64,000 nucleotides of DNA, taken from positions 1 through 64,000 of the forward strand of contig CAKQDG010000003.1 in NCBI GenBank assembly GCA_934219025.1, written 5' to 3'. Below the pieces are notes generated by a model, which saw nothing but the letters and a program-made list of their open reading frames with translations, searched no databases and was not told the DNA's origin. Positions 2,608 through 60,604 of this stretch are shown here, in pieces. The stretch comes from an uncultured Prevotella sp. (GTDB lineage: Bacteria; Bacteroidota; Bacteroidia; Bacteroidales; Bacteroidaceae). Positions within the stretch are counted from its first letter, which is position 1. Every line of letters starts with the position of its first letter. The position numbers and the translations under genes were made by a program.

Positions 2608-2641
2608 CTCCATTATATAGGTTATTTTGTGTGTCATGCTT

Positions 2642-14793: not shown

Positions 14794-14939
14794 TGCTCGG
14801 AGATATAATAGCAGCAATAAAGTTGTGGTGGAAACAGAATATCACTTGCAGGCACGACTACCACTATAAGGAGATTAACCCTTACAACTCGTGGGAGCAG
14901 TGCAGCAAGTGTGGGAGAATTAAAAATTATAGAGGATAA
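14793..14939 (+). CDS. 48-residue zinc-ribbon-like protein
   Basis: TAATG start. CRHDYH and CSKCGRIK supply three Cys and a His, the half-site pattern of a short zinc ribbon. Ends 4 bp before thyX. Function unknown. Confidence 0.5.
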   Translation: MLGDIIAAIKLWWKQNITCRHDYHYKEINPYNSWEQCSKCGRIKNYRG

Positions 14940-14943
14940 AATA

Positions 14944-33100: not shown

Positions 33101-33938
33101 GTTGTTTGTCAAAATTTTTTGTTTCATATATAGCCGTACCATACTCATCGTTGTTTGGGTAATAATAAGGGATATTATCTGATGAGCCATAACCTGTAAT
33201 CATATCTACAAGCTTTGTGCTCGCATTCTCCTTACTGATAGATAACAGTTCGCTATCTCTTCCGTATTCAAGGATGTGTTCCGTTAAATCATATTGTACC
33301 TTTCCTACATGACAAACGTTACCAACCCAATAGTAATCAAGTTCGTATTCTGTATTTATAAGCTGCAGAACATTAGTTAGGTACTGATTTTCAAACGATA
33401 TTTCTTTTACCTCATCTGTTCCGTAACCTTCATCGATAACAAGATAATATCCTTTTTCCGCTTCGGTCTTACCATTTGGATTGTACAACCCGCAATAAGA
33501 CATGGAGCTATTTACACGTGCAACAAACTCGTAAATATCACCACCAAAAGTAAACTTTGTTTGGTTGCTTCTGTATTTATCTATCATTTGTGTTGCCGTG
33601 TCGCTTGTTACAACATCGAAAAACAGTGTATTATCCAACAATTCCCTCCTGGATGTAAACGTGAGTTCGTGTTTGTAAAGATTATTACTATTATCTTTGC
33701 TTGACGATGGTATAGATGTTATATAATATTTATCTCCGTCAAGTTCAACGTATTCCCCGTAAGTCCATTCTTTATCTAAAGGTGTAGGAAAATAGAGAGT
33801 TGCGGTTATAGTCGGAGCACCACCCATACGCTTTCTTTCGTTGGTGTATGTTCCTATAACGGCAACGTTATCGTCTGATGGAAAGTTCTCAACTTTACCA
33901 TTTACGACTCTCTTTATGTATAGTGCTTCTACTTTCAT
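27168..33938 (-). CDS. Giant tail hub / tail tip protein
   Basis: 2256 residues. N-terminal tail-tip domain (about 1-300) with TATLYFPTPLDKEWTYGEYVE, then a large beta region (300-1000). A collagen-like stretch is GEDGKQGEKGEQGIAGEGG. Carbohydrate-binding-module-like beta sandwiches (about 1500-2000; WSLNESDPANSG, SSARIYFRTYGS) and a C-terminal fibre-like end follow. Probably the central tip protein carrying receptor or polysaccharide-binding domains. Confidence 0.65.
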   Translation of the reverse strand: MKVEALYIKRVVNGKVENFPSDDNVAVIGTYTNERKRMGGAPTITATLYFPTPLDKEWTYGEYVELDGDKYYITSIPSSSKDNSNNLYKHELTFTSRRELLDNTLFFDVVTSDTATQMIDKYRSNQTKFTFGGDIYEFVARVNSSMSYCGLYNPNGKTEAEKGYYLVIDEGYGTDEVKEISFENQYLTNVLQLINTEYELDYYWVGNVCHVGKVQYDLTEHILEYGRDSELLSISKENASTKLVDMITGYGSSDNIPYYYPNNDEYGTAIYETKNFDKQLISYINLEKVFKWNSNIYQEELAFGKFTQDEYSTNIIGVTPYIATLLSYKVATQDNLQFEAGLGYYKTSAGHGTITNGSGTREVLSDRYSFYIITDVNSLKVEGFLDFKDFQVSVKEKETSVGLKFNIFYGFYIGEGKTKKEAYEYYSGGAKGEYKPSAWGTIPPGFTDYSESSDKKHVFLTSDTCAVVIYCRVELANPEITKDNNDTIKCIATPNNKFYLGIKPKNQYSIITDSKEVGLNESGIEVSDLSAIPCMEAKYEFTTKGWVFSRDEKTSQTGRLYITGRNWVDPVSNLMPSVYRSSNGAERFYYAKNNTYKIPDTEDYYVFKNLYKQGLPHQGSVSYDDIKPTINGVKNSKGELFGEIADVAFDSNDSDVKGSDGETFLHQYFYIKLHVFDGEFGFNLFKQALASESAKINMIDCQGCPACVFPIESHWDSGNNNCYNIVNTDGNGNLVATGKLDTESGFQGDYIFSNDDASISDNKNQNTQEKEIWIAVQKETSTLGIVMPNAAAGFKPKKGDKFVITGIQMPPSLVYAAEKRLDDALVKYMSENNEDQFNYSIKFSRVYLAENPDFANKLNENTKLAIKYNGNTEPKEVFVSNYSVKVENSTLASIEVDLTNSLEVTESDIKQIVNSVKGETVRSLSSLLSGNGNSFNANITDKLYLSKQTNDNANGVITFLKGIALGTNYSISELGDAFLRIIQGKGYYISGDGDVVFRDMASSDYDYAAQSGYGMKRREDGKFKLSLTDLEVWGKAVFHELEIRKLSYVGGNFIFSPAGSTLMHVEEVKVTTALDGSSVTTGYKCYFLADNGTTATENMWKVGDLAFSQSFGIKEGVYENVSNRRYWRKVTAVSSENEQITDADGNILYDGQKFGWITLSNTMPGTYYEKSSDVPQVGDAVCCLGNVSDEERQNAIEIQTVGDLAPAIIQYGGIKTFSLADCVKTQISPKGNKFIGTFYVKSSDNSTPVRVPCDKGEWQNGTKYEYYDRVTHNGSLWLCIAADGTELEPTDENTSVWQKQVSKGEDGKQGEKGEQGIAGEGGWSYTMSPASLAFETDKDGKVTISDGTNNFAVIRGYKGTAAVNIQLDKSSLQAYNCIGEVSQSDFTSGSIKIKSINNQTIEERVVPCSSGHVSVKARVYDDEGTFSDWFWVYLYFSVSFAASVAKLEVLTDSIKSSVEELSTKKADATDVEGKYNELTESISTIEQTAEGISLKVDQQSVRGRNLIPRSYFFNTSRIYGIGQRKFTLEAGKYYSLSVNGHIDAALKNGGGVLRAFIFNLAWTFVKNIDIDSTTDITATLEGNDSFTVPSTGEYYFMAYPLHNTGNYDNTKPQENGLITLNWAQLEEGNVCSPWSLNESDPANSGNFLPVLSDEKWTRATGSDIQEGALDTGFRKLQALHYRNTSSGEVDVLYMNDIFAPDSGEVYTLSFWAKGSGTIKSFLYPEACERVADNFGQVGTQPDGYLPHTLTSDWQRIRIAYCIYQLFGNYFYNAGFNAASSYTANWDITGTTRHIASAVDGWGGQYIVKASGASYCEISQAVGAYITASWWTITFKAKNPSVMRIYLSGISLDTIDNSGMTVCVDGVDQSVKSDSGVNYVEVAASASAYTEHSITFKASSALSSARIYFRTYGSYFYIAKPMFTPSSQKSGFSTREQGVVRNILPCRLAANSEVWIGGVKLEQGGRMTDYTEDGVSVDELLATGINIRNRKITVTADNFEVRNNKGEVTTTVDADGQLTAGILATKNRGEGFIKAEDGLMKVFNGDGHCNIQFGVDPNSGMMVLSYYDNDDNLLYNLGPNGLENKDLTNSVLTEYGAERLGTFFNNQSRFSSVSGTTLYDDSVYHIDSDGNYIIDTAFKSRLFPSSTTGEGYEPTSALNKGKTLYYYRAAKVSAAYIADTANGITTPALAEQANDKWFSEKPICQSGTLQLINSGEYIMSGEALHWGKKKNSSFNQLAIYFYSFDGGVRERFEVFVE

Positions 33939-43512: not shown

Positions 43513-46500
43513 ATGGCAGATATATCAGCAATAGGAAGTGCTCTCGTTATAGACGAGAAAGTTCTAAATCGAATAAAAGAAGCAGACGATAAGTTGGTTT
43601 CATTACAAAAAACCGCAGATGAAACAGCTAAAAAAATCGGAACATCCTTCAAGGGAATGTCCGACAGTATTAATCCGTTCCTTACAGCTCTCGATAATGT
43701 TATTACAAAATTGGGAAGTATTAACACGGTTGCAGGCAACGTAGGTAGCGGCTTATCTCGGATTAACACAAACGTGGGAAACCTTGGGTCTGGAGCATCA
43801 CAAGCCACACAAGGTATAGTTGATTTGGTTAATCAGCTCTCACAGATTGGTGGCAAGGGTGCAAGTGGTGTTATGCAAGCGGTATATGCTTTTCAAAGGT
43901 TGCAGGAATCTATGAAAGGTAATAGTGGTATGAATATAGCCCAACTCACAGAGGAGATTAACAATATAAACACAAAACTTACAGATACAGAAAACCTTTT
44001 AACAAAGAGCGAGCAAGACGCACTTGTTAAAAGAAGGGCATTATTGCAAGATGAACTTAAAACGCAGCAGAGAACTTACGATGAAAGGGTTATCGCTTTT
44101 CAGACTGCCATTGACAAGATGCAGGCAGCCGAAACTTCATTAAATGCAAAACAAAGAAAGAATGCAAATGAAAGAGCAAAATTTTATCGTGATAACAATT
44201 ACCAGACGAACACAACTTTTGAGGGATCTTTAAAATTTGCAGACACAGCCAACACTTACAATCGAATGGCTACTGCCGTAAATTACCTAAATACCGCAAA
44301 AAAGCAGCTCACAATAACAGATGCCGACTACGATGCAAAAGTACAGACGCTTGATGCAAAAATACACAGCATTACCCTAACAATGAAGCAGCTTAGTATG
44401 ACTACTGAGCAAAGGTTAGCAATACAGAAAAACGCAAACAAAGAAGCTGAAGCGGAAATAAACAGACAGATTAAAGAAGATGCTGCAAATCAAAAACGCA
44501 TCCAATCTATACGTGCTCTAAATGCTGAACTCGCTAAACAAAAAAACTACGAAAAGAATACCTCTTTTACTGGAGCAATAAGTTTTGCAGATACAGCGAA
44601 TACTTACAACAGACAAGCAAAAGCCGTTGAATACCTTACCGTTGCAAAGAAAAATCTTAGCCTCACAGATTCCGACTACCAAACAAAAGTAGATGCAATT
44701 AACCAAAAACTACATGCCCTAACAAACTCCATGAAGGAGAGAATGATGACATCAGAACAAATTGCAGATGTTCAAAAGAAAGTCAATGCGGAAATTCTAC
44801 AAGAAATAGATTCCCTCCAAAAAGAGCAAGCCGCCTACCAAAAGCGCACACAAGCCATAAAAGAAATGCAAGCAGAACTTGCAAAAGAAAAGAATTATAA
44901 CACTAACACAACCTTAGATGGAGCATTAAAGTTTTCCGAAACGGCAAATACGGTAAACCGAAGGATAAAGGCTATTGAATATTTACAGGTGGCACGCAAT
45001 AAGCTTAGTACAACAAGTAAAACTTATGCTGAAGATGAAGAACGTATTCGTAAAACTATCGATAGGCTTGTAGAGGCAAATAAAAATGCTACATCTTCAA
45101 CAGAAGAACTTGCAAGAAGAAGACAGCAGTCGTATAGTAAACAAGCAAATTTGTACAAAGAGCAAAACTACCAACAGAATACTACATACCAAGGCGCGCT
45201 TGATTTCTCCGCTACCGCAAATACCCTGAATAGACAAATAAAGGCTATCGAATATTTAAAAGAAGCGCGGTTAAAGTTATCACAAACCGACTCCGATTAC
45301 AAGCAAAAGCTCGAAATCTTAAATAATGCTATAAAACAACATTCAAAGGCATTAAAAGATGCAGGTGTAAACGCTCGCTCTCTTGGAGAACAAACATCAT
45401 ATCTAAGCGGTTATGTTTCACGTTTAGCACAAAGGACAGCAGTTGTATTCTCAATGAGTGCAGCAAAAGGCTTCGTTGAACAGATTGCAGAAGTCCGAGG
45501 TCAGTTTGAACTCTCAGAACGCTCTCTTGAAGCAATCTTACAGAATAAGCCAAAGGCGGATGAGATATTTAACAAAACGGTAGAACTTGCCGTTAAATCA
45601 CCATTCCGTATCAAAGACTTGGTGGATTACACCAGACAACTCTCTGCATACAGAATACAAAGCGACAAGCTTTATGATACCACCAAACGTCTTGCAGATG
45701 TATCGGCAGGTCTTGGTGTTGATATGGGACGACTTATCCTCGCTTACGGACAAGTCAAAGCAGCTGCATACCTACGTGGAAGTGAGGTGAGACAGTTTAC
45801 GGAAGCAGGTATCAATATGTATGGAGAGTTGCAAAGTTACTTCAAAGAAGTTAAGGGCGAGGCATACACTACGGCTCAAATTGTAGATATGATTTCCAAA
45901 AGAAAGGTAACTTTCGAGGATGTGGAAGCTATTTTTCAACGCATGACCGACAAGGGCGGTACATTCTACAATATGCAGGAAATACAAGCGGAAACCCTAC
46001 AAGGTAAGATTTCCAACCTGAAAGATGCGTTCGATGTAATGCTTAATGATATAGGCAAAGAAAACGAGGATACATTTAAGGGGCTTATTAGTGGAGCTAC
46101 CATACTACTCAATAATTGGGATAAAATCGCAGCGGTAGGAAAAGATTTAGCAGGAGTACTTGCTCTTATCATGCTTCAAGCAAACAAAACCGGTGTTAGT
46201 TTGAAGGAAATGTGGACAAGCACAGGTTTTACAACATATTCCATTAAAGGTAAAGGCGCACTTGGCATTTTGGCAAACTCATTCAAAACACTTGGCTCCG
46301 CTGCAAGGTCAGCTGGATTACTTATGAAAAATGCCCTGGTTGGCAATCTTCCATTATTAGCATTTGCATCTTTAGCGCAACTTGTATGGAATGCAGTAAG
46401 TGCATATACAAGTTTCCGGGAGGAACAGGAGAAAATTAACAGTGAAACAATAGAAGCAAAGAAGCGACTCGGTGAACTGTCTGCCGAATACGAACGCATA

Positions 46501-49500
46501 AAAGACAAATATGCATCAAAAAAAGACAGTACCGGCAATCGTATTGTAACCGATCAGACAAAATTTCAAAAAGAAGCCAAAAGTGTCCTTGATAGTCTGA
46601 ACGACGAATTAAAAGCACACAAATTAGAAATACCTATCGAAGTAAAAGAACCAAACGCTGGAGATATAGATAAAGCTATTCAATCTTCTAAGACAAAACT
46701 CGATAAATTCATCCAGATGGCACAAGATGCAAAGTCTTACATCAATGGCGAGGATAATTCTTGGTGGAATAGTAACAATCTCAACTTGTTTGGTATTCCT
46801 TTATGGGCAGATAGTTTCTCAACAGATATGAAGGAACTTGACGATGCAGCTAACGATGTGCGAGAGTTTTCTTCAAGAGCACAAACAGCCATCGATGCAC
46901 TCGGAGAGGGATATGATAAGTTGTCCGCAAAATCCAGAGCAGCATACGACACTATTAAAGATGGTGCAAAACCAGGTGAACTTGATGTCGAATACCTACA
47001 GAGAGTAAACGAGATAATGGGGCAGATATTCAAAAACGAATCGCATAACAAATCGTTTAAAGAATATGCTGACAAACTACGTGAACAACTATATGGACTT
47101 GATGATAACCTCGGAGCTGTACTTGGCGGTTCGTTTAAGAGAGCAAAAGAGGAGGCTAACCATGAATTACAGGGGCTATTCGATACGATAAACAATATAT
47201 ACGGTTCATACTTAAAGAAATTGAAGCCTGCGGAAGTTAAAGTTTTTTTTGATAATGTTGCCACTCAAAACAACCTTAACGAGTTACAAAAGAAAATTTT
47301 ATTAACTATCGCTGCAAATGTATATCATTTTAAGGTGGATGCAGACCCACAAAGTATGAATACCACACAACAGAAAATATATTCATTTATGGATGATTTA
47401 CAAGCAGAGGCAGATAGACGAAAGATAAAAATCAGCCTCGCTGTTATCAACCCAAAAAATGCACTCGATGCCGTTAAAGGATTTCAAAGCTCTGCGAAGG
47501 ACATTAAAGAGTTAATAGACCAGATTAATAGGGGAAAGATACAATGGTTTCACGGATCCAACCTCGGCATTAGCTCTACGATGAAATGGAACAATCAAAA
47601 TGTAGGTACAAATACTGTTTTTCAAAAATCTACCGCTATTGCATTCCTCCAGGATCAGTTAAAAAATGTTCTCGAAAAGAATACTCTTGCAGGCGGTACT
47701 GACCCTTTTGCGACAAAGAACACGAATAGAAGAAACACCAACAAAACAGACAAGGCACAGCGAGACATTCTTTCCGAGCGTATTTCCCTGCTGAAAGAAA
47801 TGAATCAGCAGTACGAGAAGCTGGATAAGTATCTCGATGATGAAACGGCGGCTACACAGGTGATGAAGCAGTATGCTGACAACATTAAGTTTGTTGGTAT
47901 GCCCGATGATGTTATCAAGGGTTTTGTTCCAGACAAGCAAGGTCTTATCGCTGCATTGAAGAAAATAGAGCCAACTATCGCCGACTTCAAGAAACGTACC
48001 CAACTCAAAAACGACATCATAGAATTGCAGGTTCAGCTCGATACAGAGTATATGCAACAGCAGTTAGATGATGTAAAGAACGAGGTCAGCAAGGCTTTTG
48101 ATAACTTGGAGCTATACAAGAAGCTCAAAGGAGAAGGTCTTTCGGACGGAATGATTAAGGGTATGTTTGGCGACCTAACATCTTCGTTTGATGAGGTGAG
48201 AAGCAAGATTGATAGCGAGTTTACTGCAAAGTTTGGCGATAAGTCAAAGTGGAGCACCGATATTGCAAAGCAGTGGCAGGAGCAGATGGATAATCTTGAC
48301 AAGAAAGTCTATCAAGACCAAGTGAACCAAGCGCAGGAGTTAATAAAGGCATACAAGCAACAGCTCTCAGACCAGTTGCAGTTAGATGCTTGGTATATCG
48401 CCGAGCGTGATAAAATTCAGAACAATGCAAACATATCCAAGGATAAGGACTTGCAGAAGCAGTTGCAGGATAATCTTGATAAGCAGTATGCACAAAAGAC
48501 AGATGCAAACACTTGGAAGGATTTCCAAAACAGCGATATGTATATTGCTATATTCGAGAACCTCGACCAAACATCTAAGCGTGTTCTTACCGCAATGCGT
48601 GCAAGGCTCGATGGATTGCGTTCATCTCTTAAAAATCTTTCGCCTGAACAACTAAAACAGATAGTTGAACAGATAGACAAGATTGATACACTTCTTGTTG
48701 AGAAAGACCCATACAAGAGCCTTGGTAAGAATTTCGCAGAATATTTGAAGTTTGCAGCAAAGCGCAAGAAGCTGGAGAAGGAACATATCGAAGCAACAAA
48801 GCAGGAACAAATCTTGAAGAATCAGCAGAGCAATGCAAACAAAAACGTAAGTCGAGACGAGGCTGCATACAACGCCGCAGTAAAGAAGTATGGTATTACA
48901 TCGCAAGAGGCGCAGGAAGCCAAAATCCTTTGGGAATTAGACAAGAGCAGACTTGATGTTATTACAGAGCAGCTTGTCGCCCAGGGCAAGATAACAGAGG
49001 AACAGGCGAAACAAATTCGTAATGGTCAGAAGTTAGAGAAAACACTACAACAGCAGGTACAGAATATTGGAAAGGGCTTCTCTGATGCCGCAAGCTCTAT
49101 TTCCGAATTATTCGAGTCTATGAACGATTGGGGGCTTAATATCGAAATGCCCGATGAATTGTCCGAGGTTGTCAGCGGTATCAGTAAGATTGGTTCTTCC
49201 CTTGAAAGTATAGATATTACCAAGCCTTTCTCTATTATCAAGGGTACGATTGGCGTTCTTGGTGGAATAGGAAAGACCGTTGGTGGTATCTTTGGATGGG
49301 GTACAAAAGACAAGAAACTGCAAAAGGAAATCGAGGAGCACCAAAAAGCTATCGAGAAATTGCAGAATGCTTACAACGACCTCAAAGAGGCGATGGATAA
49401 CGCCTATGATATAGCTGAGTTGGCTAAATACAATGACGAGATGATTAAGAATCTCGAAATGCAGAATGCCAACTTGGAGTCTATGATTAAGGCGGAGCAG

Positions 49501-50280
49501 GATAAGAAGAAATCCGACGACGACAAGATTGAGGAATATCGCAAGCAAATTGAGGCTAACAATAAGGCTATCAAGGAAGCTGAGCAAACTCTTACAGAGG
49601 AGCTTGGAGGCTTCGGCAAGGAGTCTAACTTCAAGTCAGCAGCGCAAGCGTTCGCCGAGGCTTGGGTAGATGCTTTCAACGAGGGCAGCGATACTCTTGA
49701 AGCTCTAGAGAATAAATTTGATGATTACTTCAACAATATGCTAAAGAAGCAATTAACCGCAAGAGCGGCAGAGAAGTACATACAGCCTATTCTCGATGCG
49801 TTCGATGCAGCCGTTGCAGAGAATAGTGATGGAGACAACAACGGATTGGAAGTAACCAGGTCGGAAATTGAAGCCATCAATAAACTCAAAGACAAGAACC
49901 TAGCTGCATTCGATGAATACGCCAAGGCTCTTATGGAGGTACTCAATGTTAAGCCAAGCGGCAGCTCTAACATCTCTGCCTTACAGCAGGGCATTCAGTC
50001 TGTAACGGAATCAACCGCACAAGCTCTTGAATCGGTTTTGAATAGTATGAGATATTACCTAGCTCAGCAGCAAGCAGATGTAAGGACTATTCGCGATACG
50101 TTATTAGAAAGGTTGGGTAATACTCTAACATCTATATCGCAAGACTCGGCAAACTCCCCTATTCTTGTGGAGCTAAGATTACAGACCGGGTTACTAACAG
50201 ACATCCGTGATACATTAGACTCTTGTGTTAAGGCCGGACACAAACAAGGACGTAGTGGTATTAAGGTATTCATGAACTAA
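43513..50280 (+). CDS. Tape measure protein
   Basis: 2255 residues. Long coiled-coil N-terminal half with four related blocks marked by NNYQTNTTFEGSLKF, KNYEKNTSFTGAISF, KNYNTNTTLDGALKF and QNYQQNTTYQGALDF (starting near residues 223, 343, 460 and 551). Then a conserved tape-measure domain (about 640-850, FVEQIAEVRGQFELSERSLE, LRGSEVRQFTEAGINMYGEL), further helices, and hydrophobic segments near 880 and 960. At about 0.15 nm per residue the tail would be roughly 340 nm. Confidence 0.85.
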   Translation: MADISAIGSALVIDEKVLNRIKEADDKLVSLQKTADETAKKIGTSFKGMSDSINPFLTALDNVITKLGSINTVAGNVGSGLSRINTNVGNLGSGASQATQGIVDLVNQLSQIGGKGASGVMQAVYAFQRLQESMKGNSGMNIAQLTEEINNINTKLTDTENLLTKSEQDALVKRRALLQDELKTQQRTYDERVIAFQTAIDKMQAAETSLNAKQRKNANERAKFYRDNNYQTNTTFEGSLKFADTANTYNRMATAVNYLNTAKKQLTITDADYDAKVQTLDAKIHSITLTMKQLSMTTEQRLAIQKNANKEAEAEINRQIKEDAANQKRIQSIRALNAELAKQKNYEKNTSFTGAISFADTANTYNRQAKAVEYLTVAKKNLSLTDSDYQTKVDAINQKLHALTNSMKERMMTSEQIADVQKKVNAEILQEIDSLQKEQAAYQKRTQAIKEMQAELAKEKNYNTNTTLDGALKFSETANTVNRRIKAIEYLQVARNKLSTTSKTYAEDEERIRKTIDRLVEANKNATSSTEELARRRQQSYSKQANLYKEQNYQQNTTYQGALDFSATANTLNRQIKAIEYLKEARLKLSQTDSDYKQKLEILNNAIKQHSKALKDAGVNARSLGEQTSYLSGYVSRLAQRTAVVFSMSAAKGFVEQIAEVRGQFELSERSLEAILQNKPKADEIFNKTVELAVKSPFRIKDLVDYTRQLSAYRIQSDKLYDTTKRLADVSAGLGVDMGRLILAYGQVKAAAYLRGSEVRQFTEAGINMYGELQSYFKEVKGEAYTTAQIVDMISKRKVTFEDVEAIFQRMTDKGGTFYNMQEIQAETLQGKISNLKDAFDVMLNDIGKENEDTFKGLISGATILLNNWDKIAAVGKDLAGVLALIMLQANKTGVSLKEMWTSTGFTTYSIKGKGALGILANSFKTLGSAARSAGLLMKNALVGNLPLLAFASLAQLVWNAVSAYTSFREEQEKINSETIEAKKRLGELSAEYERIKDKYASKKDSTGNRIVTDQTKFQKEAKSVLDSLNDELKAHKLEIPIEVKEPNAGDIDKAIQSSKTKLDKFIQMAQDAKSYINGEDNSWWNSNNLNLFGIPLWADSFSTDMKELDDAANDVREFSSRAQTAIDALGEGYDKLSAKSRAAYDTIKDGAKPGELDVEYLQRVNEIMGQIFKNESHNKSFKEYADKLREQLYGLDDNLGAVLGGSFKRAKEEANHELQGLFDTINNIYGSYLKKLKPAEVKVFFDNVATQNNLNELQKKILLTIAANVYHFKVDADPQSMNTTQQKIYSFMDDLQAEADRRKIKISLAVINPKNALDAVKGFQSSAKDIKELIDQINRGKIQWFHGSNLGISSTMKWNNQNVGTNTVFQKSTAIAFLQDQLKNVLEKNTLAGGTDPFATKNTNRRNTNKTDKAQRDILSERISLLKEMNQQYEKLDKYLDDETAATQVMKQYADNIKFVGMPDDVIKGFVPDKQGLIAALKKIEPTIADFKKRTQLKNDIIELQVQLDTEYMQQQLDDVKNEVSKAFDNLELYKKLKGEGLSDGMIKGMFGDLTSSFDEVRSKIDSEFTAKFGDKSKWSTDIAKQWQEQMDNLDKKVYQDQVNQAQELIKAYKQQLSDQLQLDAWYIAERDKIQNNANISKDKDLQKQLQDNLDKQYAQKTDANTWKDFQNSDMYIAIFENLDQTSKRVLTAMRARLDGLRSSLKNLSPEQLKQIVEQIDKIDTLLVEKDPYKSLGKNFAEYLKFAAKRKKLEKEHIEATKQEQILKNQQSNANKNVSRDEAAYNAAVKKYGITSQEAQEAKILWELDKSRLDVITEQLVAQGKITEEQAKQIRNGQKLEKTLQQQVQNIGKGFSDAASSISELFESMNDWGLNIEMPDELSEVVSGISKIGSSLESIDITKPFSIIKGTIGVLGGIGKTVGGIFGWGTKDKKLQKEIEEHQKAIEKLQNAYNDLKEAMDNAYDIAELAKYNDEMIKNLEMQNANLESMIKAEQDKKKSDDDKIEEYRKQIEANNKAIKEAEQTLTEELGGFGKESNFKSAAQAFAEAWVDAFNEGSDTLEALENKFDDYFNNMLKKQLTARAAEKYIQPILDAFDAAVAENSDGDNNGLEVTRSEIEAINKLKDKNLAAFDEYAKALMEVLNVKPSGSSNISALQQGIQSVTESTAQALESVLNSMRYYLAQQQADVRTIRDTLLERLGNTLTSISQDSANSPILVELRLQTGLLTDIRDTLDSCVKAGHKQGRSGIKVFMN

Positions 50281-50335: not shown

Positions 50336-50485
50336 TTACACCCCGGGCTTGTAGTACAGAGTAAGAACAAGACACATTCCATTAGCTGCCACTCCCTTAT
50401 GCATGGTTGCAAGCAATGCTCTCGCCTTATCGTTTGGAGATGTAATATTGCCCCAAATTTTTCTAATATCCTTATCTGTCCTCAT
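50336..50485 (-). CDS. TRD cassette 11 (readable)
   Basis: 49 residues, no homopolymer tract. Core RKIWGNITSPNDKARALLATM and CLVLTLYYKPGV. The pattern (short strand, GN-x-TSPNDKARAL, terminal hydrophobic strand) fits target-recognition segments that precede motif IX in fused C5 methyltransferases. It is the last cassette, and its start lies in the VTYILESYEDR coding end of cassette 10. Confidence 0.6.
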   Translation of the reverse strand: MRTDKDIRKIWGNITSPNDKARALLATMHKGVAANGMCLVLTLYYKPGV

Positions 50486-50614
50486 AACTTTCAAGAATAT
50501 ATGTTACACCATTATTACCACCGCCCTTGTACATGGTAGCGCATAGGGTAACAGATTTCTCTCGCCCCCCCGAAGCTGCTTGTGAATTAAATCCAATTGA
50601 TGCTTTGCCGTCAT
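50472..50614 (-). CDS. TRD cassette 10 (ambiguous frame, G7)
   Basis: From the ATG at 50614, a G7 tract (50566-50572 region) leads to an early stop at 50504-50506. With one extra G it ends VTLCATMYKGGGNNGVTYILESYEDR-like at 50472 (47 residues). However another frame read through G7 is GKASIGFNSQAASGGREKS, which is more TRD-like at its N-terminus but lacks an ATG. Either a second indel occurred, or the frame is switched elsewhere. Confidence 0.45.
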
Positions 50615-50766
50615 TGCTCTCTTAATTCTAAAACAAACGGACGTAGGTCAAAACCACCTACTCCATGAGAATAGTAAGCGGTCAACGTTCCGCATTTCTT
50701 CTTGGGGGGGGTATGTATAACTATTGACTTATACAAAGTCGGGTAAAATACTAATCTATGTTGCAT
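50611..50766 (-). CDS. TRD cassette 9 (readable at C8)
   Basis: 51 residues. A C8 tract (50704-50711) encodes the TPP of VIHTPPKKKCGTLTAYYSHG and is in frame, so the peptide reads to FDLRPFVLELREQ. KCGTLTAYYSHGVGG is the clearest TRD-like phrase (small-residue/threonine loop). Loss or gain of one C would truncate it. Confidence 0.65.
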   Translation of the reverse strand: MQHRLVFYPTLYKSIVIHTPPKKKCGTLTAYYSHGVGGFDLRPFVLELREQ

Positions 50767-50910
50767 AAACTTCTAATATATATGGTCTATAACCTCTTGT
50801 ATCATATCCTTTATGATAAGATGCTTCGATACCCCCCCGATGGAATATTCCACCAAAGAGAATGTTCTTAATCCTCCGTTAATCTGTGGATGTACTTGGT
50901 ATCTTCTCAT
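50756..50910 (-). CDS. TRD cassette 8 (out of frame at G7)
   Basis: G7 (50831-50837) currently diverts the frame to a stop at 50773. With G8 it reads 51 residues: MRRYQVHPQINGGLRTFSL, then IGGGIEASYHKGYDTRGY and YILEVYAT. The full-length frame ends in the cassette-typical strand LEVY. So it is OFF in this sequence. Confidence 0.6.
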
Positions 50911-51040
50911 ATAAACTTAAAATTATCGCCCTTACATTTCTGTTCGGGTCGCATCCTTTCCAATCATTCGCCATTAAAGCTTGACATTTTCTTTTTTTTG
51001 TCTGCCACGGCTTGAAATGATCAAGCAAATACTCTCTCAT
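50879..51040 (-). CDS. TRD cassette 7 (readable)
   Basis: 53 residues from the ATATGAGAG start; a longer frame from 51070 runs into cassette 6. No G tract, but an A8 run (TKKRK). KCQALMANDWKGCDPNRNVRAI is a recognisable TRD phrase, ending ILSLYEKI. Confidence 0.65.
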   Translation of the reverse strand: MREYLLDHFKPWQTKKRKCQALMANDWKGCDPNRNVRAIILSLYEKIPSTSTD

Positions 51041-51221
51041 ATACTTCAAGTAAGTAATTAATCTGTCCACCCGACATTACGGAACTTGTCTTCTCGTCGG
51101 GTCTGCAAGAATAGGCAAGCAGAGTGCTTCTTGTGCCATATTTCCGCTCGCCTAATGAATATTCTTTCCATACCTTTTTGCCGAGTTCCGTGCGGTATTG
51201 GTTAAGTATTTTCTTTCTCAT
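51021..51221 (-). CDS. TRD cassette 6 (readable)
   Basis: 66 residues, no tract. MRKKILNQYRTELGKKVWKEY then RSTLLAYSCRPDEKTSSVM and INYLLEVYERVFA. Its N-terminal half matches cassette 0 (ILNxYRxELGxK and RPDxK), showing that the two are paralogues on either side of the catalytic gene. Confidence 0.7.
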   Translation of the reverse strand: MRKKILNQYRTELGKKVWKEYSLGERKYGTRSTLLAYSCRPDEKTSSVMSGGQINYLLEVYERVFA

Positions 51222-51366
51222 ATAATTCTAACACCTTTATCCCCAAACCGCCACCTGCATCTGTTTGACAACAAATTGCCCCCCCGTAAATGGAGTAAAA
51301 CCTATGACGTTGCCGGGTAGTATTTCCCCATTCGTGATTTCCGTTAAGCTGTATCGGTCTTTTCAT
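51202..51366 (-). CDS. TRD cassette 5 (readable at G7)
   Basis: 54 residues. GNTTRQRHRFYSIYGGAICCQTDAGGG with a G7 tract (51279-51285) in frame at YGGA. Phrases of the RVYSxxGxxPxxxxGGG type are typical of fused C5-methyltransferase TRDs. Ends IKVLELYEKENT. Confidence 0.7.
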   Translation of the reverse strand: MKRPIQLNGNHEWGNTTRQRHRFYSIYGGAICCQTDAGGGLGIKVLELYEKENT

Positions 51367-51508
51367 AAAATATAATCAACATATTGTCTTTTGCCACCGA
51401 GGTAAGAGAACTTGATTTAAGCCCTCTAAGCTCTATTTTTTGAAGGTGCGAAGAATTACACCATTCACCAACAGAACGTCCCCTAATAGCTGCTATATTC
51501 GCTCTCAT
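51344..51508 (-). CDS. TRD cassette 4 (readable)
   Basis: 54 residues, no tract. RGRSVGEWCNSSHLQKIELRG then LKSSSLTSVAKDNMLIIFYEK. Compare the RGR...QxLExR...KSxxLTTVxKDN pattern common in fused phage C5-methyltransferase TRDs. This is the cassette that convinced me of the family. Confidence 0.75.
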   Translation of the reverse strand: MRANIAAIRGRSVGEWCNSSHLQKIELRGLKSSSLTSVAKDNMLIIFYEKTDTA

Positions 51509-51631
51509 AAAGATTTAACAAGCAATCACTCTGTGAATTGTTCCCTGCTCCGTGAGCACCGACACACAAAGCCATCGCCTTGTTTGATTTTATAAGCCCC
51601 CCCCCCTACGGCTAATTCTTATTTGTCTCAT
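51483..51631 (-). CDS. TRD cassette 3 (out of frame at G10)
   Basis: G10 (51597-51606) leads to an early stop after 13 residues. G11 (or G8) opens 48-49 residues: MRQIRISRRGG(G), LIKSNKAMALCVGAHGAGNN, SQSDCLLNLYESEYSSY. KAMALCVGAHGAGNN is TRD-like. OFF in this sequence and, with the longest tract, probably the most unstable. Confidence 0.6.
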
Positions 51632-51799
51632 ATACTCTAAATATATACCCCCCCGATGTGCAGTCTGTAAACACTGATGTTTTACAGAAACAAATGATAT
51701 TGTACCAAATTCCGTTAGACTTCCTTTGTGTCCGTCATTCTGATATGGTCTTAGCCCATCCCTTGTAACAGATACCCCGTATAGTCTACATTCTTTCAT
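51612..51799 (-). CDS. TRD cassette 2 (out of frame at G7)
   Basis: Present frame runs 69 codons to 51590 across the cassette 3 start. With one extra G in the G7 tract (51648-51654) it ends QTAHRGGYIFRVYETNKN at 51612 (62 residues), matching the shared cassette end. YGVSVTRDGLRPYQNDGHKG then LTEFGTISF and CLQTAH resemble the DGxRxYQND...GT... TRD type. Confidence 0.6.
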
Positions 51800-51933
51800 A
51801 TATCTCTATTATTCCTGTGTGCTGTCTGTGCCCCGGAAAATACCACCAATCCTTGTATTTTGTATTCAAGGCTGCTGATTTCTTTATGGGGGGGGGTAAC
51901 ACCATTACCCATATTAAACGCTTGCATCCTCAT
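51786..51933 (-). CDS. TRD cassette 1 (out of frame at C9)
   Basis: C9 (51888-51896) leads to a stop at 51796 after a non-typical tail. C8 opens 48 residues: NMGNGVTPPIKKSAALNTKY, KDWWYFPGH, TGIIEIYERM. FNMGNGVxPxIKKSA is TRD-like. Starts inside the end of the catalytic gene. Confidence 0.6.
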
Positions 51934-53138
51934 ATATTTTACGAAGTCTTTGCTGTTCCAAGCGATACCCAAGTTCGGCAAGCTCACGCTTTTCTGCATC
52001 TGTAAGGTCTGAATATTCACTCGAGCCGTTCAGCCAATCCATAACTTCATTTACGCTAACTTGCGGCTCTAACAGATAATCCTTTAGCTTTTTCTTGTCT
52101 GTCCGTTCTATAAGTTGTCGGACTGTATCATCTTTCAGATAGTACTTTTCATCCGCTTTCTCTTGAAGTATATCCTTGATTACAAGTCCTCTGTCTTCCG
52201 GCTGCGGAATATCCGTCTGCAGTGGCGGTAAGGCAAATGGATCGTTCTCGTCATAGAACAATGAATCTCCTGCAACTTCCCTTGTTCTTATGTTAGTCCA
52301 ATAAATACGCCTTCTGTTTTGTGCCGATACCAAAGCTGAATTAATGTGAACACCGCGCACACCGATAGCGTGAGAAAGGCATCTTTCCCATTTCTCCAAC
52401 ATCTTGACGTTTTCAAGAAAGAAATAAATATCCGGATTATACTTACGTAATTCTGTAAGTATTCGCATGTATTCCCAAAACAGATAGGACTGACCTTCAA
52501 ACTGAAAGTTCTGTGATTTTAATTCAAGGTATCTTTTAAGGGTATAAATCTCTTCGCCTTTCTTTGTACTCATACCTTTCATCTTGCCGGAAAACGAAAA
52601 GTTAGTACACGGTGAGCCTCCCATAATTATATCGGGAACACCATATTTTTCTACAATTTCATCCACATTTAACTCCGTTACACTACCCAACTGGATAGTA
52701 TCGGGGAAGTTATGCTGCGTGTTGGCTATTGCGTATTTGTCTATTTCAGATGCAAGGTAAGTATCTATCTTTGCACCTATGCCACGGAGAGACATTTGCC
52801 CCCCCCGAAATTCCGTCAAACAAAGACAAAACCTTTATGTCGTTCAGTTTCTCTTTTGGTATGAAGCTGAAAATATACTTTATCGTCTCGATGTTCCACC
52901 CATTACCCAAGCCTTTGTATTGCTGTGTTTCAGATGTAATAAACTCGTAATCATGCGGCAGCGTTTGCAACTCCGCACACTCTTGCGGTGTTAGTCTACG
53001 TATTGCGGCAACATATTTTATTCCGTTCACCTCGAAGTCTATACCCTGCTTGTTGTCAGGCATGGAGCTTTGAAACTCTTTTAACTGCTTCTCTTTTACC
53101 TGTCGATAAATATCTCTTGCTATTTCTTCTTTTCCCAT
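51914..53138 (-). CDS. Circularly permuted cytosine-C5 DNA methyltransferase, phase-variable, currently frameshifted
   Basis: A G8 tract (52799-52806) splits the gene into a 130-codon N-terminal frame and the rest. With G7 it reads 407 residues: motif IX RRLTPQECAELQTLP (47-61), motif X YKGLGNGW...IKYIF (74-90), motif I KVLSLFDGISGG (102-113), motif IV GGSPCTNFSFSG with catalytic Cys177, ENV (242-244), motif VIII QNRRRIYW (273-280). IX-X before I-VIII is a circular permutation, as known for a few C5 methyltransferases. No TRD is recognisable between or after these motifs; the C-terminal 130 residues are helical and end KIYEDASV. It would transfer methyl from SAM to C5 of cytosine. OFF in this sequence. 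Confidence 0.85.
52799..52806 (-). repeat. G8 phase-variation tract in the methyltransferase gene
   Basis: Eight G on the minus strand at DGISGG in motif I, the SAM-binding loop. G7 keeps the frame into QMSLRGIGAK; G8 gives ANVSPWH and a stop. Slipped-strand mispairing would switch the enzyme on or off. Confidence 0.8.
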
Positions 53139-53320
53139 ATATTCAATACTAAATTATCCATAATAAAAGTAACAATAGTACCACTCTTTAAGTCAGGGCG
53201 TACCTGATAGGAACGCATAGATGAGCGGTTACACCACGTATTTCTTATTCCACTATCATACTCTTTTCTAAACTTTCGCCCCAACTCGTTACGATACTTA
53301 TTTAAGATGATTTCAACCAT
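53120..53320 (-). CDS. TRD cassette 0, upstream of the catalytic gene (readable)
   Basis: 66 residues, no tract. IILNKYRNELGRKFRKEY, SYQVRPDLKSGTIVT and LVLNIWEKKK. Paralogue of cassette 6. Its ATATGG-containing end includes the start of the methyltransferase, and its own ATG lies in the end of the preceding gene, so the catalytic gene itself sits inside the cassette series. Confidence 0.7.
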   Translation of the reverse strand: MVEIILNKYRNELGRKFRKEYDSGIRNTWCNRSSMRSYQVRPDLKSGTIVTFIMDNLVLNIWEKKK

Positions 53321-53814
53321 TTACTACACTTGATATCATGACGGTTGCAAGTTGCATCCTTCCCGTTAACAACCTCCACGTTTACATCTCCATAACAGTA
53401 CAATTCAAGATTACCGTCGTTTTTAATTATTACATTTGGCGTTTTGCAGATATACAGCTTACAAATGTTTCCACTTCGGTTATATATTACAGAACAATCC
53501 CCTACAACTAAATTTATGGTTGCAGTAAGGACAAACCCGGATTTAGGATTTACATACATAGTGCTTGTATATCCATCTTTGTTTCTTAGGTATTGACCGT
53601 GTACGTAATTTCTGAAAACGCTCTCTTCAAGATATTCCAAACTTACACCCCAGCCAAATGCCATAGCATCGGCAAGAAACTCTATACCATTGCTGTCAAG
53701 AACAAGATCCATGAGATCTTTCTCTGTCTTGCATGCATCCCATAAGTCTTTATACTTTCCACATAAGCCTAACTTTAGAGCATTTCTTTTTAATGACAGT
53801 AATTCATTCTTCAT
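53302..53814 (-). CDS. Hypothetical protein with beta-rich C-terminus
   Basis: 170 residues. A helical N-terminal half (LSLKRNALKLGLCGKYKDLW, LMDLVLDSNGIEFLADAMAFGWGV) and a beta-rich second half (NLVVGDCSVIYNRSGNICKLYIC). The first half is seen in many Bacteroides phage proteins of unknown role. Overlaps cassette 0 by 19 bp. Confidence 0.55.
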   Translation of the reverse strand: MKNELLSLKRNALKLGLCGKYKDLWDACKTEKDLMDLVLDSNGIEFLADAMAFGWGVSLEYLEESVFRNYVHGQYLRNKDGYTSTMYVNPKSGFVLTATINLVVGDCSVIYNRSGNICKLYICKTPNVIIKNDGNLELYCYGDVNVEVVNGKDATCNRHDIKCSKWLKSS

Positions 53815-56132: not shown

Positions 56133-57080
56133 TTAATCATCATCTTTAATGAAACTTTCCGATACAGGCTCTCTGAGATATTTCTTGAAATTACCTCCGT
56201 TTATCCACTTATTGTAAATATCCTCGCCATCACCCGACCTTTTTATCATATCTATGACTTTAAGCCAATTACGTTTTATGTGAGGGTATCTTTTGTTTTC
56301 TGTAATTTTCTGCCGAGGAGAGGATTCAGGACAACCCAAACATCCAATCCTTTTACACCCTCTATCATACAATTCGCAATGCCGTATATTGAGCGTATCA
56401 AGAAATCCCCAAACATCATCATCTGTCCAATTTATAATTGGAGAAATCAGTAAGCTTTCCTTCCCTCGAATACACCCCAATACACTTTCCTTGTCAATAT
56501 TGTAAATACCTATAGATGGTTTTCTTCCACGTTTTTCCTTATTACGCTTAACTCTAAAAGCATCCAATTCTTCAAGAGTTCCGCTAAATTTACGTCCACT
56601 TATTTCTACTTCCTTACGGTTAGACCGTTGAGTACTTTCTGAATGACGCACACCTATCAGTGTAACCTTTCCTGCCCCTGCACCTTCCTTAAAAACAGAG
56701 CAACACCATCTTATTTTTCTTGTTGGCAACAACTTACGTTTTATCGCCTCATTAAAAATACTTACATTTGGCTTTATCATCTCAACATCTGGATATTGTT
56801 GTCTAACAAAGCGTATCACTTCGGGCGGATCAACACTCGTGAGGTTCATGTGTGCCTGGAACTTTACTCCTGCCAACTTTGCTATATGGTAAAGACACTG
56901 ACTGTCCTTACCGCCACTGAAGGCGAGGAAATATCCGTTCTCGGAGTCGTAAGATGTTGCAAGACGCTCCGCCCTGCGAAGCAAAACTACGCTGTAAAGT
57001 ATTTTGCTCTGCATCTCAGAAGAAAACCTTTGAGTTATTTCCTTGTATGTAATATCCAGTTCGGAATTTATCATACACAA
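56133..57080 (-). CDS. PAPS reductase-family protein
   Basis: 315 residues. ATP-pyrophosphatase loop SGGKDS (55-60), a helical domain with RKIRWCCSVFKEGAG and IGVRHSES, then INWTDDDVWGFLDTLNIRHCELYDRG and a four-Cys segment (CKRIGCLGCPES). This is the PAPS reductase/DndC-like superfamily, seen in many phages. Members act in sulfur transfer to nucleotides or DNA; here it sits between methyltransferases, so DNA modification is possible but unproven. Confidence 0.7.
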   Translation of the reverse strand: MCMINSELDITYKEITQRFSSEMQSKILYSVVLLRRAERLATSYDSENGYFLAFSGGKDSQCLYHIAKLAGVKFQAHMNLTSVDPPEVIRFVRQQYPDVEMIKPNVSIFNEAIKRKLLPTRKIRWCCSVFKEGAGAGKVTLIGVRHSESTQRSNRKEVEISGRKFSGTLEELDAFRVKRNKEKRGRKPSIGIYNIDKESVLGCIRGKESLLISPIINWTDDDVWGFLDTLNIRHCELYDRGCKRIGCLGCPESSPRQKITENKRYPHIKRNWLKVIDMIKRSGDGEDIYNKWINGGNFKKYLREPVSESFIKDDD

Positions 57081-58929: not shown

Positions 58930-60604
58930 ATCTTCTATATATATATTATTATATTAATTTAACAATTATCGCATCTATATATATTAAAATATTTAACAAT
59001 GTACGCATATAGATAAGGGTTATCATATGTCTAACCATATATTATCATATAGTTCAATATATGTGTATACAATAGGAACAATGATAATATATGAACATAT
59101 ATAACCCTTATAGAAGTATAAACATACGAGCCGTCCGGACAACAGACCACAACACGGCAAAAACACAGAAAAGACAAAATAAGACGTTCTAAGACGTTTT
59201 CTTGCTACAAGACTTATAATTTACCACAGAAAACATAAAACTCGCTTAAAACGGCTTAAAAGTGGGTTAAATCGAATTTGACAACATGCGTGTACTTGCT
59301 GAAAAATAAAAAAATAAAAAAATTTTGAAAAAGAGCGGGTCCGGGTGCTGCTCCCTGGTTGCCGGGGGGGGGGGATGCAAACACGGCAAACACGGCAAAT
59401 ATAGACTACATGCAAGACGGTTATACTCTATATTGCAAGCGTAACGAACGTCATGCACACAATACAAGCGCATGTAAGCGCATTAAATAGCAAGTAAGTA
59501 CAATTACACGGAAACAACATACAAGCGTCTCTTATATGCGCTTACATGCAATTACAGATTATGCAACACGCATGTATATATGTAATAAGGCGAATTGCAC
59601 ACTATCTTACATATAACTTAATCGCACACGCTCTTATATTGCAGTGGGAGATATTTGCACTCGACATATACAACTGCAATTATACGCATATATATTATAT
59701 ATAATAGGTACACACACGCTAAAACACGTATATTTGTCAATATTTTCGAAAATAAACACTATTTCGTAAAAATAATCTGAGAAAAGCTTGCACGTATCAA
59801 AAAACCGCCGTATCTTTGCAACGTAAAATTTAAGGAACACGATTTATTAGCAAGAAATCAACCTTATATTACATGCGCTCTTTGACTTGCTTACAATACG
59901 CGGTGCAACGACATACATTATAGCATGCGGCGCGAGCGGCTGACAATTGCAGTTATACGTGTATAACAGCAAACAGGTACGACACAACGTGCGGTGCATA
60001 AGATATTGAGACTTAACGCGGTAATTATACTAATATACATATACGCATAACAGCAGCGTAATATAATATGCTGTTAGTCGTATAGTACTTAACTATATGG
60101 TTACTTATGCTACCAGACGGGCGGCGTCTGGATAATCTGAGTGTATAACAGCTAAATTATACACGTGCTAAGCAATAACACGTTAAACTAAAATGCAAAG
60201 GTAGGGTGCACAACGTACACCGTGCAACATTAATCTAATTAGCAATTACATCGCTATATATTACACTGATTATGATAGCTATCATAACAGCAACGATATA
60301 TACATATATCTAATTGCATGTAATTAGTGGTACGGCATGGTAGAGTCGTATGGTTATACCAATACAGATATGGAGTACATCAACGGATGGAAACGGCTGT
60401 ATATAACTATACAGATAGCTACTGAGTATAGGGGGCGGCTCCCTATAGTGCCACAATAATAAAACCCGCTACAATTGCAGCGGGCTGTACAATATACGGA
60501 TAATCCGCATAACTTGCACGATTTATTAGCATCTGCAAAGTTATTGCTATAATTCCGTATCTGCAATTAAGTAAACATTTATTAATAATTAAACAGATAC
60601 AATT
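58930..60604. other. 1.7 kb noncoding region rich in inverted repeats
   Basis: No credible gene on either strand. Short inverted repeats are dense, e.g. CAGACG/CGTCTG (about 60115-60131), CCCGCT/AGCGGG (60465-60484) and GATAGCTATC (60274-60283). ATAACAGC occurs four times (60023-60292). A G11 run is at 59364-59374. It could contain an origin, structured RNA or a long regulatory leader for the ATPase gene. Confidence 0.6.
59787..59818 (+). promoter_or_regulatory. Promoter-like sequence before the AAA+ gene
   Basis: CTTG, then 20 bp, then TATCTTTG (59811-59818) fits the Bacteroidales consensus loosely. If used, the transcript would have a leader of nearly 790 nt before the ATG at 60605. Confidence 0.5.

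What the first reader, a model, noticed from the sequence alone, without database searches (positions are those of the whole stretch)
50336..53320. An array of twelve separately encoded target-recognition cassettes around one C5 methyltransferase
Seen: eleven consecutive minus-strand ORFs of 47-66 codons follow the catalytic gene (starts 51933, 51799, 51631, 51508, 51366, 51221, 51040, 50910, 50766, 50614, 50485), and one (53320) precedes it. Each shares a design: M(R/K) start, a core like the TRD of fused C5 methyltransferases (RGR...SSSLTSVAKDN, KCQALMANDWKG, KCGTLTAYYSHG, QRHRFYSIYGG), and a terminal strand of LEVYE type that in fused enzymes leads into motif IX. Cassettes 0 and 6 are paralogues. 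Known: C5 methyltransferases recognise DNA through a TRD between motifs VIII and IX, and two-subunit enzymes such as M.AquI exist. Inference: each peptide pairs with the catalytic subunit in trans and sets a different specificity. I know of no described system with a dozen stand-alone phase-variable TRDs.
Basis: partly seen in the sequence, partly recalled or inferred. Interest (0 to 1): 0.97.

Follow-up and report, generated by a model that had tools for sequence, protein, structure and literature searches.

The report
Phase-variable array of methyltransferase specificity mini-genes
A phage DNA-methylating enzyme is flanked by a dozen tiny gene cassettes, most of them related to the DNA-reading domain of ordinary enzymes of this kind, which are likely made as separate interchangeable parts that would give one enzyme many target sequences, while runs of repeated Gs whose length varies between near-identical phage sequences likely switch single parts on and off.

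Summary
Real and unusual. Minus strand 53320-50336 holds a circularly permuted C5 methyltransferase (motifs IX-X before I-VIII), split by a frame change at a G tract in motif I, with one cassette before and eleven overlapping cassettes after it. Seven of twelve cassettes are open here; five change frame at a G/C tract. Eight of twelve types match the region after motif VIII, where fused viral methyltransferases read DNA (22 of 22 matches at E<=0.01). Cassette 11 is 59% identical over 37 residues to the stretch before motif IX of a Phocaeicola phage enzyme. Of the 120 closest relatives listed, 15 carry one cassette fused in frame, 14 before motif IX and one at the C-terminus; 105 carry none. 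In five near-identical contigs all four cassette tracts vary, with four open/closed patterns. The cassette frames tested are under purifying selection, and a relative lacks cassettes in ways that fit crossovers at the junction repeat and in a G tract. Assembly in trans and separate specificities are inferred; two AlphaFold models were uninformative there. Nine searches of open-access papers listed nothing like it. Most likely a switchable specificity array built from a phage C5 methyltransferase.

The parts
53120..53320 (-). Cassette 0 (upstream TRD cassette, 66 aa, open); its end overlaps the start of the catalytic gene
   Evidence: best match iE 1.8e-5 in VIII-IX of L013; paralogue of cassette 6; same type fused in frame before motif IX in P0035 and P0048
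52746..53138 (-). 5' part of the permuted C5 methyltransferase: motifs IX and X, then motif I up to the G tract
   Evidence: PF00145 profile positions 243-321 matched, E 4.5e-11; sequence RRLTPQEC ... YKGLGNGW ... VLSLFDGISGG
52799..52806 (-). Run of 8 G (C on + strand) inside motif I where the frame changes
   Evidence: the same tract and frame change in L001
51914..52819 (-). Main part of the permuted C5 methyltransferase: rest of motif I to VIII, then a conserved helical tail without recognisable TRD
   Evidence: PF00145, E 1.3e-23; intact 413-436 aa relatives in L002-L008; best 120 of 7998 relatives listed
51786..51933 (-). Cassette 1; frame changes at the tract 51888-51896 (C on this strand)
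   Evidence: open homologue in L002 at 6881-7030; no significant match to fused TRDs
51612..51799 (-). Cassette 2; frame changes at the G tract 51648-51654
   Evidence: piece before the tract matches VIII-IX of L080, iE 1.6e-5
51483..51631 (-). Cassette 3; frame changes at the G tract 51597-51606
   Evidence: open homologue in L002 matches VIII-IX of L035, iE 0.0098; own piece only 0.018
51344..51508 (-). Cassette 4 (54 aa, open, no tract)
   Evidence: 30 protein clusters of similar length; hhalign to six chosen fused enzymes P 96.4%, E 1.2e-9; Ka/Ks 0.05-0.25
51202..51366 (-). Cassette 5 (54 aa, open; carries G tract 51279-51285)
   Evidence: Match in VIII-IX of L040, iE 0.0048
51021..51221 (-). 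Cassette 6 (66 aa, open, no tract)
   Evidence: Match after motif VIII of the SJC10 enzyme (no motif IX was found in it), iE 0.0024, and in VIII-IX of L013, iE 0.014; Ka/Ks 0.03 against L001
50879..51040 (-). Cassette 7 (53 aa, open)
   Evidence: best match to fused TRDs only iE 0.44; absent from L002, where its neighbours join at the shared junction repeat
50756..50910 (-). Cassette 8; frame changes at the G tract 50832-50838
   Evidence: weak match of the second piece, iE 0.047; 82 bases of the first half 98.8% identical in L002
50611..50766 (-). Cassette 9 (51 aa, open; carries a tract 50704-50711, C on this strand)
   Evidence: weak match, iE 0.018; homologue open in 3 of 5 and closed in 2 of 5 near-identical contigs
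50472..50614 (-). Cassette 10; frame changes at the G tract 50565-50571
   Evidence: second piece matches VIII-IX of L082, iE 0.0021; homologue open in 4 of 5 contigs
50336..50485 (-). Cassette 11 (49 aa, open, last; no tract)
   Evidence: 49 protein clusters of similar length; 22 of 37 residues identical, E 1e-9 for the single comparison, to the stretch before motif IX of Phocaeicola phage BD26P1 methyltransferase; same type fused at the C-terminus of P0152

Best explanation
A circularly permuted phage C5-cytosine methyltransferase without a recognisable target-recognition domain is surrounded by twelve short coding cassettes, eight of them related in sequence to the recognition domains of fused enzymes, which are predicted to be translated as separate peptides that dock on the catalytic chain and set its DNA target, with G/C tracts likely switching single cassettes on and off. 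Shown: the permutation, the sequence relation, the natural fusions, the tract polymorphism, the purifying selection on the cassettes tested, and cassette gain or loss at junction repeats and a G tract. Inferred: permutation puts the two free ends of the catalytic chain (before motif IX, after motif VIII) on either side of the empty TRD slot, so a TRD can be supplied in trans; cassettes are translated by coupling at the overlapping TATGA junctions; each gives its own m5C motif; slippage in the tracts sets which cassettes, and whether the catalytic gene itself, are in frame; and the resulting mixed methylation patterns protect some phages of a population from host restriction.
For: (1) Both catalytic ORFs match PF00145, in permuted order; of the 120 closest listed relatives 116 have motif IX before motif IV and the other four begin after the IX signature but still have GNGW (motif X) before motif I; 116 have only 120-139 residues after motif VIII, 3 differ, and in 1 motif VIII was not found. 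(2) 22 cassettes or pieces against 74 fused enzymes: at iE<=0.01, 10 of 22 queries hit and 22 of 22 hits lie between VIII and IX (or the C-terminus where no IX was found), a region holding 44.6% of the residues; of 440 shuffled queries 1 hits. At iE<=0.1: 15 of 22 queries, 43 of 43 hits inside; shuffles 7 of 440, 6 of 9 inside. At iE<=1: 17 of 22, 90 of 92 inside; shuffles 60 of 440, 57 of 111 inside (hits are not independent because the targets are related). (3) Profile-profile, with fused enzymes chosen for such modules: cassette 4 family E 1.2e-9, cassette 11 family E 2.4e-5, both in VIII-IX. (4) In the enzyme of Phocaeicola phage BD26P1 a cassette-11-like stretch (22 of 37 identical) sits just before motif IX. 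(5) 15 of 120 permuted enzymes carry a cassette fused in frame, 14 before IX and one at the C-terminus, 105 carry none at iE<=1e-3. (6) ORFs of cassette size are numerous: 30 clusters of type 4 and 49 of type 11 (that search only admits proteins of 0.55-1.75 times the query length). (7) Ka/Ks 0.03-0.25 in the 9 of 13 cassette comparisons that gave a ratio, also for pieces of cassettes 1 and 2, which are frame-interrupted here. (8) Five near-identical contigs differ at all four cassette tracts and show four open/closed patterns; the tract-free cassette 4 is open in all five. (9) In L002 cassette 7 is absent with a join at the shared TATATGAGA, and cassette 9 is absent with 8 and 10 joined at their G tracts.
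Against: No expression or methylation data. Cassettes 1 and 7 have no significant match to any fused TRD; 8 and 9, and 3 on its own, are weak. None of the seven open cassettes tested reaches a Pfam family, and tblastn of six cassettes against annotated phages found no relative. AlphaFold2 models of two natural fusions were of low confidence over the cassette (pLDDT about 45-56 and 44-62) and the second made it helical, unlike known TRDs (recalled), so docking is untested. The conserved tail after motif VIII could itself read DNA. Fusions occur, so some lineages work in cis; ten of the fourteen N-terminal ones are one close group. The array was found in only 8 IMG/VR contigs, five of them near-identical. 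Homopolymer lengths in assemblies can be wrong, and one of the tract differences (last tract of L008) is a base change, not a length change. Fragments of permuted M.MpeI and M.SssI split between VIII and the TRD did not complement in published work (passage).
Confidence: 0.72

Rival explanations
1. Silent-donor model: the cassettes are not expressed parts but a store of TRD sequences that recombine into one expressed, fused position next to the catalytic gene, as with silent pilin or Vls cassettes.
For: 14 of 120 permuted enzymes have a cassette fused in frame directly upstream of motif IX; cassettes differ between relatives by joins at the junction repeat and in G tracts.
Against: Cassettes keep an ATG at the junction (9 of 9 Tyr-Glu junctions use TAT) and the frames tested are under purifying selection; tracts inside cassettes make no sense in silent donors; 105 of 120 enzymes have no fused cassette and would have no TRD.
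Confidence: 0.12
2. Frameshift-fusion model: the cassettes are read with the catalytic chain as one multi-TRD polypeptide through programmed or slippage frameshifts at TATGAG junctions and G tracts, a split-frame version of the multispecific phage enzymes.
For: Each Tyr-Glu junction shifts the frame in the same sense; G runs favour slippage (general knowledge); related fused enzymes carry several TRD-like modules in one chain.
Against: Up to eleven successive shifts would be needed; the overlaps look like ordinary coupled starts; tracts differ in the DNA itself; open cassettes without G/C tracts occur (0, 4, 6, 7, 11).
Confidence: 0.08
3. Decay model: the locus is a multi-TRD methyltransferase gene falling apart, with frameshifts from mutation or sequencing error.
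For: The catalytic gene and five of twelve cassettes are frame-interrupted in the window; homopolymers are prone to error.
Against: Ka/Ks 0.03-0.25, also for pieces of interrupted cassettes 1 and 2; tracts sit at the same or nearly the same offsets in homologous cassettes of other contigs; intact catalytic chains in L002-L008 and in most of 120 protein clusters; 79 cassette-size protein clusters of two types.
Confidence: 0.03
4. The conserved helical tail of the catalytic chain is the real recognition domain, and the cassettes tune or extend it, for example as phase-variable modulators.
For: The tail is conserved in the relatives aligned and well modelled as helices (P0148 residues 411-450, pLDDT 84-92).
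Against: Most cassettes are related to the TRD region of fused enzymes; TRDs are the variable part of C5 enzymes while the tail is conserved; in the BD26P1 enzyme a cassette-11-like stretch fills the space before motif IX.
Confidence: 0.05

Closest known systems
Multispecific C5 methyltransferases of Bacillus phages (SPR, SPbeta, phi3T, rho11)
   Same: One phage C5 enzyme with several small TRD modules (recalled; titles of primary papers seen in reference lists)
   Different: There the TRDs are in one polypeptide between VIII and IX and fixed (recalled); here they are separate overlapping ORFs on both sides of a permuted enzyme, many with slippage-prone tracts
M.BssHII and other naturally permuted C5 methyltransferases
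   Same: Motifs IX and X precede I-VIII and the N-terminus lies in the variable region (passage of PMC5944983); M.BssHII is also multispecific (title in a reference list)
   Different: A single chain with its own TRDs (recalled); no cassette array or tracts known to me
M.AquI, two-subunit C5 methyltransferase
   Different: Its second subunit carries TRD plus IX and X (recalled) and there is one partner; here IX-X are on the catalytic chain and a dozen TRD-like peptides would compete or alternate
Type I restriction-modification systems with several or phase-variable HsdS subunits
   Same: Separate specificity part, exchangeable in trans; switching changes methylation (recalled)
   Different: Adenine methylation, large two-TRD HsdS subunits, inversion or recombination (recalled); here cassettes of about 50 residues related to single TRDs of a C5 enzyme, and homopolymer tracts
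Homopolymer contingency loci (Campylobacter, Neisseria type)
   Same: G/C runs inside coding sequence that vary in length and switch frame
   Different: In a phage, and seven tract-bearing cassettes serving one enzyme

Membership tests
C5-cytosine DNA methyltransferase (PF00145) | Catalytic motifs I, IV (PC), VI (ENV), VIII (QxRxR), IX, X | tested here: met
   PF00145 hits on both pieces; motifs read
Naturally permuted C5 methyltransferases (M.BssHII type) | Motifs IX-X precede motifs I-VIII | tested here: met
   116 of 120 listed relatives; the other 4 begin after the IX signature, with motif X before motif I; window ORF order
Naturally permuted C5 methyltransferases (M.BssHII type) | TRD within the same chain | tested here: not met
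   No cassette-like stretch in 105 of 120 relatives at iE<=1e-3; met in 15 of 120
Two-subunit C5 methyltransferase (M.AquI type) | Chain break between motif VIII and TRD | tested here: met
   Catalytic ORF ends after VIII and tail; TRD-related cassettes are separate ORFs
Two-subunit C5 methyltransferase (M.AquI type) | Second subunit carries TRD together with IX and X | tested here: not met
   IX-X lie in 53138-52746 at the start of the catalytic chain
Multispecific phage C5 methyltransferases | Several TRDs between VIII and IX in one polypeptide | tested here: not met
   Cassettes are separate overlapping ORFs
Homopolymer phase-variable genes | Coding tract whose length varies and changes the frame | tested here: met
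   Four cassette tracts vary among L004-L008 with four open/closed patterns
Homopolymer phase-variable genes | Reversible switching within one clonal population | not testable with these tools
   No raw reads or cultures
Type I HsdS specificity subunit | HsdS (Methylase_S) domain | tested here: not met
   No such Pfam family for the seven open cassettes given (E up to 1; cassette 7 inside a slightly longer ORF); cassettes 1, 2, 3, 8 and 10 were not given
Working TRD in trans | Docks on the catalytic chain and sets the methylated motif | tested here: inconclusive
   AlphaFold2 models of natural fusions had low confidence over the cassette

The most novel reading that the evidence does not exclude
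A combinatorial methylation coat: one TRD-less phage methyltransferase with a set of stand-alone, about 50-residue specificity peptides that are switched independently by G/C tracts and swapped as modules at a repeated start/stop junction, so that a single phage population carries many methylation states and restriction systems of new hosts always meet some resistant particles. It would be the smallest exchangeable specificity subunit of any DNA methyltransferase known to me.
Probability: 0.5. Interest if true: 0.95.

Novelty: new variant of a known kind. Interest (0 to 1): 0.88.

Why it matters
If right, it shows that the recognition domain of a C5 methyltransferase can be a free peptide of about 50 residues, and that circular permutation opens the slot for it. 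It would add slippage-driven, modular switching of DNA methylation to phage counter-defence, where phase variation is mainly described in bacteria (general knowledge). It also makes a testable kit: natural cassettes with one catalytic subunit would let the target sequence of each recognition module be read out singly, a long-standing problem in predicting specificity from sequence.
Full report
What was checked. The window is a phage genome: tape-measure protein, portal and terminase. Its 20 kb 30000-50200 has no close relative among 50,697 annotated phage records; distant similarity of the methyltransferase region is mostly to Bacteroides and Phocaeicola phages. None of the 52 phage records matched by a permuted chain covers 80% of it in one place. 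No whole genome is held for the window.

Anatomy. Read 5' to 3' on the minus strand: cassette 0 (53320-53120) overlaps the start of an ORF with C5-methyltransferase motifs IX and X and the beginning of motif I (53138-52746); at a run of eight G (52799-52806) the coding frame passes to a second ORF with the rest of motif I through VIII and a conserved tail (52819-51914). Both match PF00145, the first to profile positions 243-321, the second best to 14-116. The enzyme is thus circularly permuted. Eleven cassettes follow, each starting inside the end of the preceding one, at TATGAG or TATGAA in nine of the eleven cases; the Tyr codon of the Tyr-Glu end is TAT in all nine, supplying the next ATG (222 of 383 Tyr codons in ten large genes are TAT). 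Cassettes 0, 4, 5, 6, 7, 9 and 11 are open as they stand; 1, 2, 3, 8 and 10 change frame at a G/C run, as does the catalytic gene.

Tracts. Eight runs of seven or more G/C lie in this 3 kb and one in the other 61 kb; a Markov model of the stretch gives 0.2. They sit at the same or nearly the same offsets in homologous cassettes of other contigs. Between the window and L001, four of the five shared tracts (catalytic gene and cassettes 1, 2, 3, 5) differ in length.

Relatives. Eight IMG/VR contigs with the system were found. L002-L008 have an intact catalytic ORF of 413-436 aa. L004-L008 are near-identical (catalytic chains 97-100% identical) and carry five cassettes (one upstream, then types 1', 4, 9, 10). 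All four tract-bearing cassettes differ in their tract among these five contigs (the last tract of L008 differs by a base change, the others by length), giving four different open/closed patterns; L004 and L008 share one; tract-free cassette 4 is open in all. This is what phase variation would leave behind; assembly error is not excluded for any single tract.

Selection. Thirteen cassette comparisons were made between the window and relatives or among relatives, covering cassettes 1, 2, 4, 5, 6, 8, 9 and 11; 0, 3, 7 and 10 were not tested, and interrupted cassettes were represented by single pieces. Nine gave a Ka/Ks, all 0.03 to 0.25; three had saturated synonymous sites; one had no synonymous change. 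Catalytic gene: 0.06 and 0.04. Pieces of interrupted cassettes 1 and 2 are as constrained as open ones, so they are not decaying.

Are the cassettes TRDs? Of 82 loci considered (79 of the 80, L012 being a duplicate of L001, and three phage records) 80 gave a methyltransferase ORF, the best where several qualified, and 74 were different; 69 of these have a motif IX after VIII, in five none was found and the region was taken to the C-terminus. In the eighteen printed the region after VIII is often long and holds several similar modules. Of 22 cassettes or pieces (13 from the window, 9 from relatives), 10 match at iE<=0.01, with 22 of 22 matches inside the region; at iE<=1 it is 17 queries and 90 of 92 matches; five queries have none (cassette 1 from the window and from L002, first piece of 8, the upstream cassette of L005, and the non-TRD ORF of L004). 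Of 440 shuffled queries one reaches 0.01 and 60 reach 1, with 57 of 111 matches inside. For the window: cassettes 0, 2, 4, 5, 6, 10, 11 match at 0.01 directly, 3 through its L002 homologue; 8 and 9 weakly; 1 and 7 not. Profile comparison gives E 1.2e-9 for the cassette-4 family (13 of 30 clusters against six fused enzymes) and 2.4e-5 for the cassette-11 family (10 of 49 against four), both in VIII-IX; the fused enzymes were chosen because they have such modules. The clearest case is the enzyme of the isolated Phocaeicola phage BD26P1: 22 of 37 residues shortly before its motif IX are identical to cassette 11 (E 1e-9 for this single comparison). Cassettes 0 and 6 likewise match one module of the Bacteroides phage SJC10 enzyme.

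Natural fusions. A search with the L002 catalytic chain scored 7998 proteins; the best 120 were listed. 116 have motif IX before IV; four begin after the IX signature. In 15 of 120 a cassette is fused in frame: type 0 before IX in two, the upstream type of L004-L008 before IX in twelve (ten of them one close group), type 11 at the C-terminus in one; 105 carry none at iE<=1e-3. Cassettes thus join at the two chain ends that would border the TRD slot. Cassette-size ORFs are common: 30 clusters of type 4 (43-88 aa) and 49 of type 11 (46-91 aa) (the search admits only similar lengths, and a few run on into a neighbour); 20 of 30 and 44 of 49 start at the same M(R/K) by a pattern test.

Recombination. 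Against the window, L002 is 73% identical over the catalytic part up to cassette 3, 89% over cassettes 5-6, 98.8% over 82 bases of the first half of 8 and 84% over the second half of 10 and most of 11. Cassette 7 is absent with a join at the shared TATATGAGA, cassette 4 is absent with a join near the Tyr-Glu codons, and cassette 9 is absent with the halves of 8 and 10 joined at the G run. Cassettes appear to be exchanged as modules; whether L002 lost them or the window gained them is open.

How it would work. Inferred: the catalytic chain lacks a TRD; permutation leaves the TRD slot open between its own ends; each cassette peptide fills the slot and sets a target; tracts switch single cassettes and the catalytic gene; overlapping starts couple translation. 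Phage orphan methyltransferases can protect against restriction enzymes, as shown for lactococcal 936-type phages (passages of PMC4190342), which is the likely use here.

Against what is known. PMC5944983 (passages) says that naturally permuted enzymes have N-termini in the variable region, and that C5 enzymes bisected naturally or artificially between VIII and the TRD complement; it also reports that permuted M.MpeI and M.SssI split there did not, which counts against easy assembly in trans. Multispecific phage enzymes are known from primary papers whose titles I saw in reference lists. Nine full-text searches of open-access papers listed no array of stand-alone TRDs (titles and abstract starts seen). 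I file it as a new variant, because each ingredient is known and the combination, as far as I found, is not.

Noticed in passing
window 14911-16854 (+): Thymidylate synthase ThyX gene interrupted by an intein (PF02511 plus PF14890).
   Followed up: no
window 53302-53814 (-): 170-aa protein of unknown function directly upstream of cassette 0; homologues sit at the same place in L001 and L002. No Pfam or PHROG family above threshold.
   Followed up: partly
window 59364-59374 (+): Run of 11 G outside the array, not inside any ORF of 100 aa or more.
   Followed up: partly
window 56133-57080 (-): PAPS-reductase-family gene near the methyltransferase locus (PF01507); such genes also occur in DNA-modification systems (recalled).
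   Followed up: no
window 2531-2608 (+): tRNA with anticodon TCA, called tRNA-SeC by ARAGORN; it might be an opal-suppressor-like tRNA.
   Followed up: no
window 43513-50280 (+) and 27168-33938 (-): Two giant ORFs of nearly equal length (2255 and 2256 aa) on opposite strands; the first is a tape-measure protein, the second was not searched.
   Followed up: no
L003 5993-6151, L004 7459-7602: A small basic ORF (MRSNTRRSQLDHERYM...) starts at the same kind of TATGAG junction after the last cassette; its L004 copy has no match to TRDs of fused enzymes.
   Followed up: partly
L013, L020, L058 (VIII-IX regions): Canonical viral C5 enzymes with long VIII-IX regions holding several TRD-like modules are common among the loci fetched, so multispecific enzymes may be far more widespread than the Bacillus phages.
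   Followed up: partly
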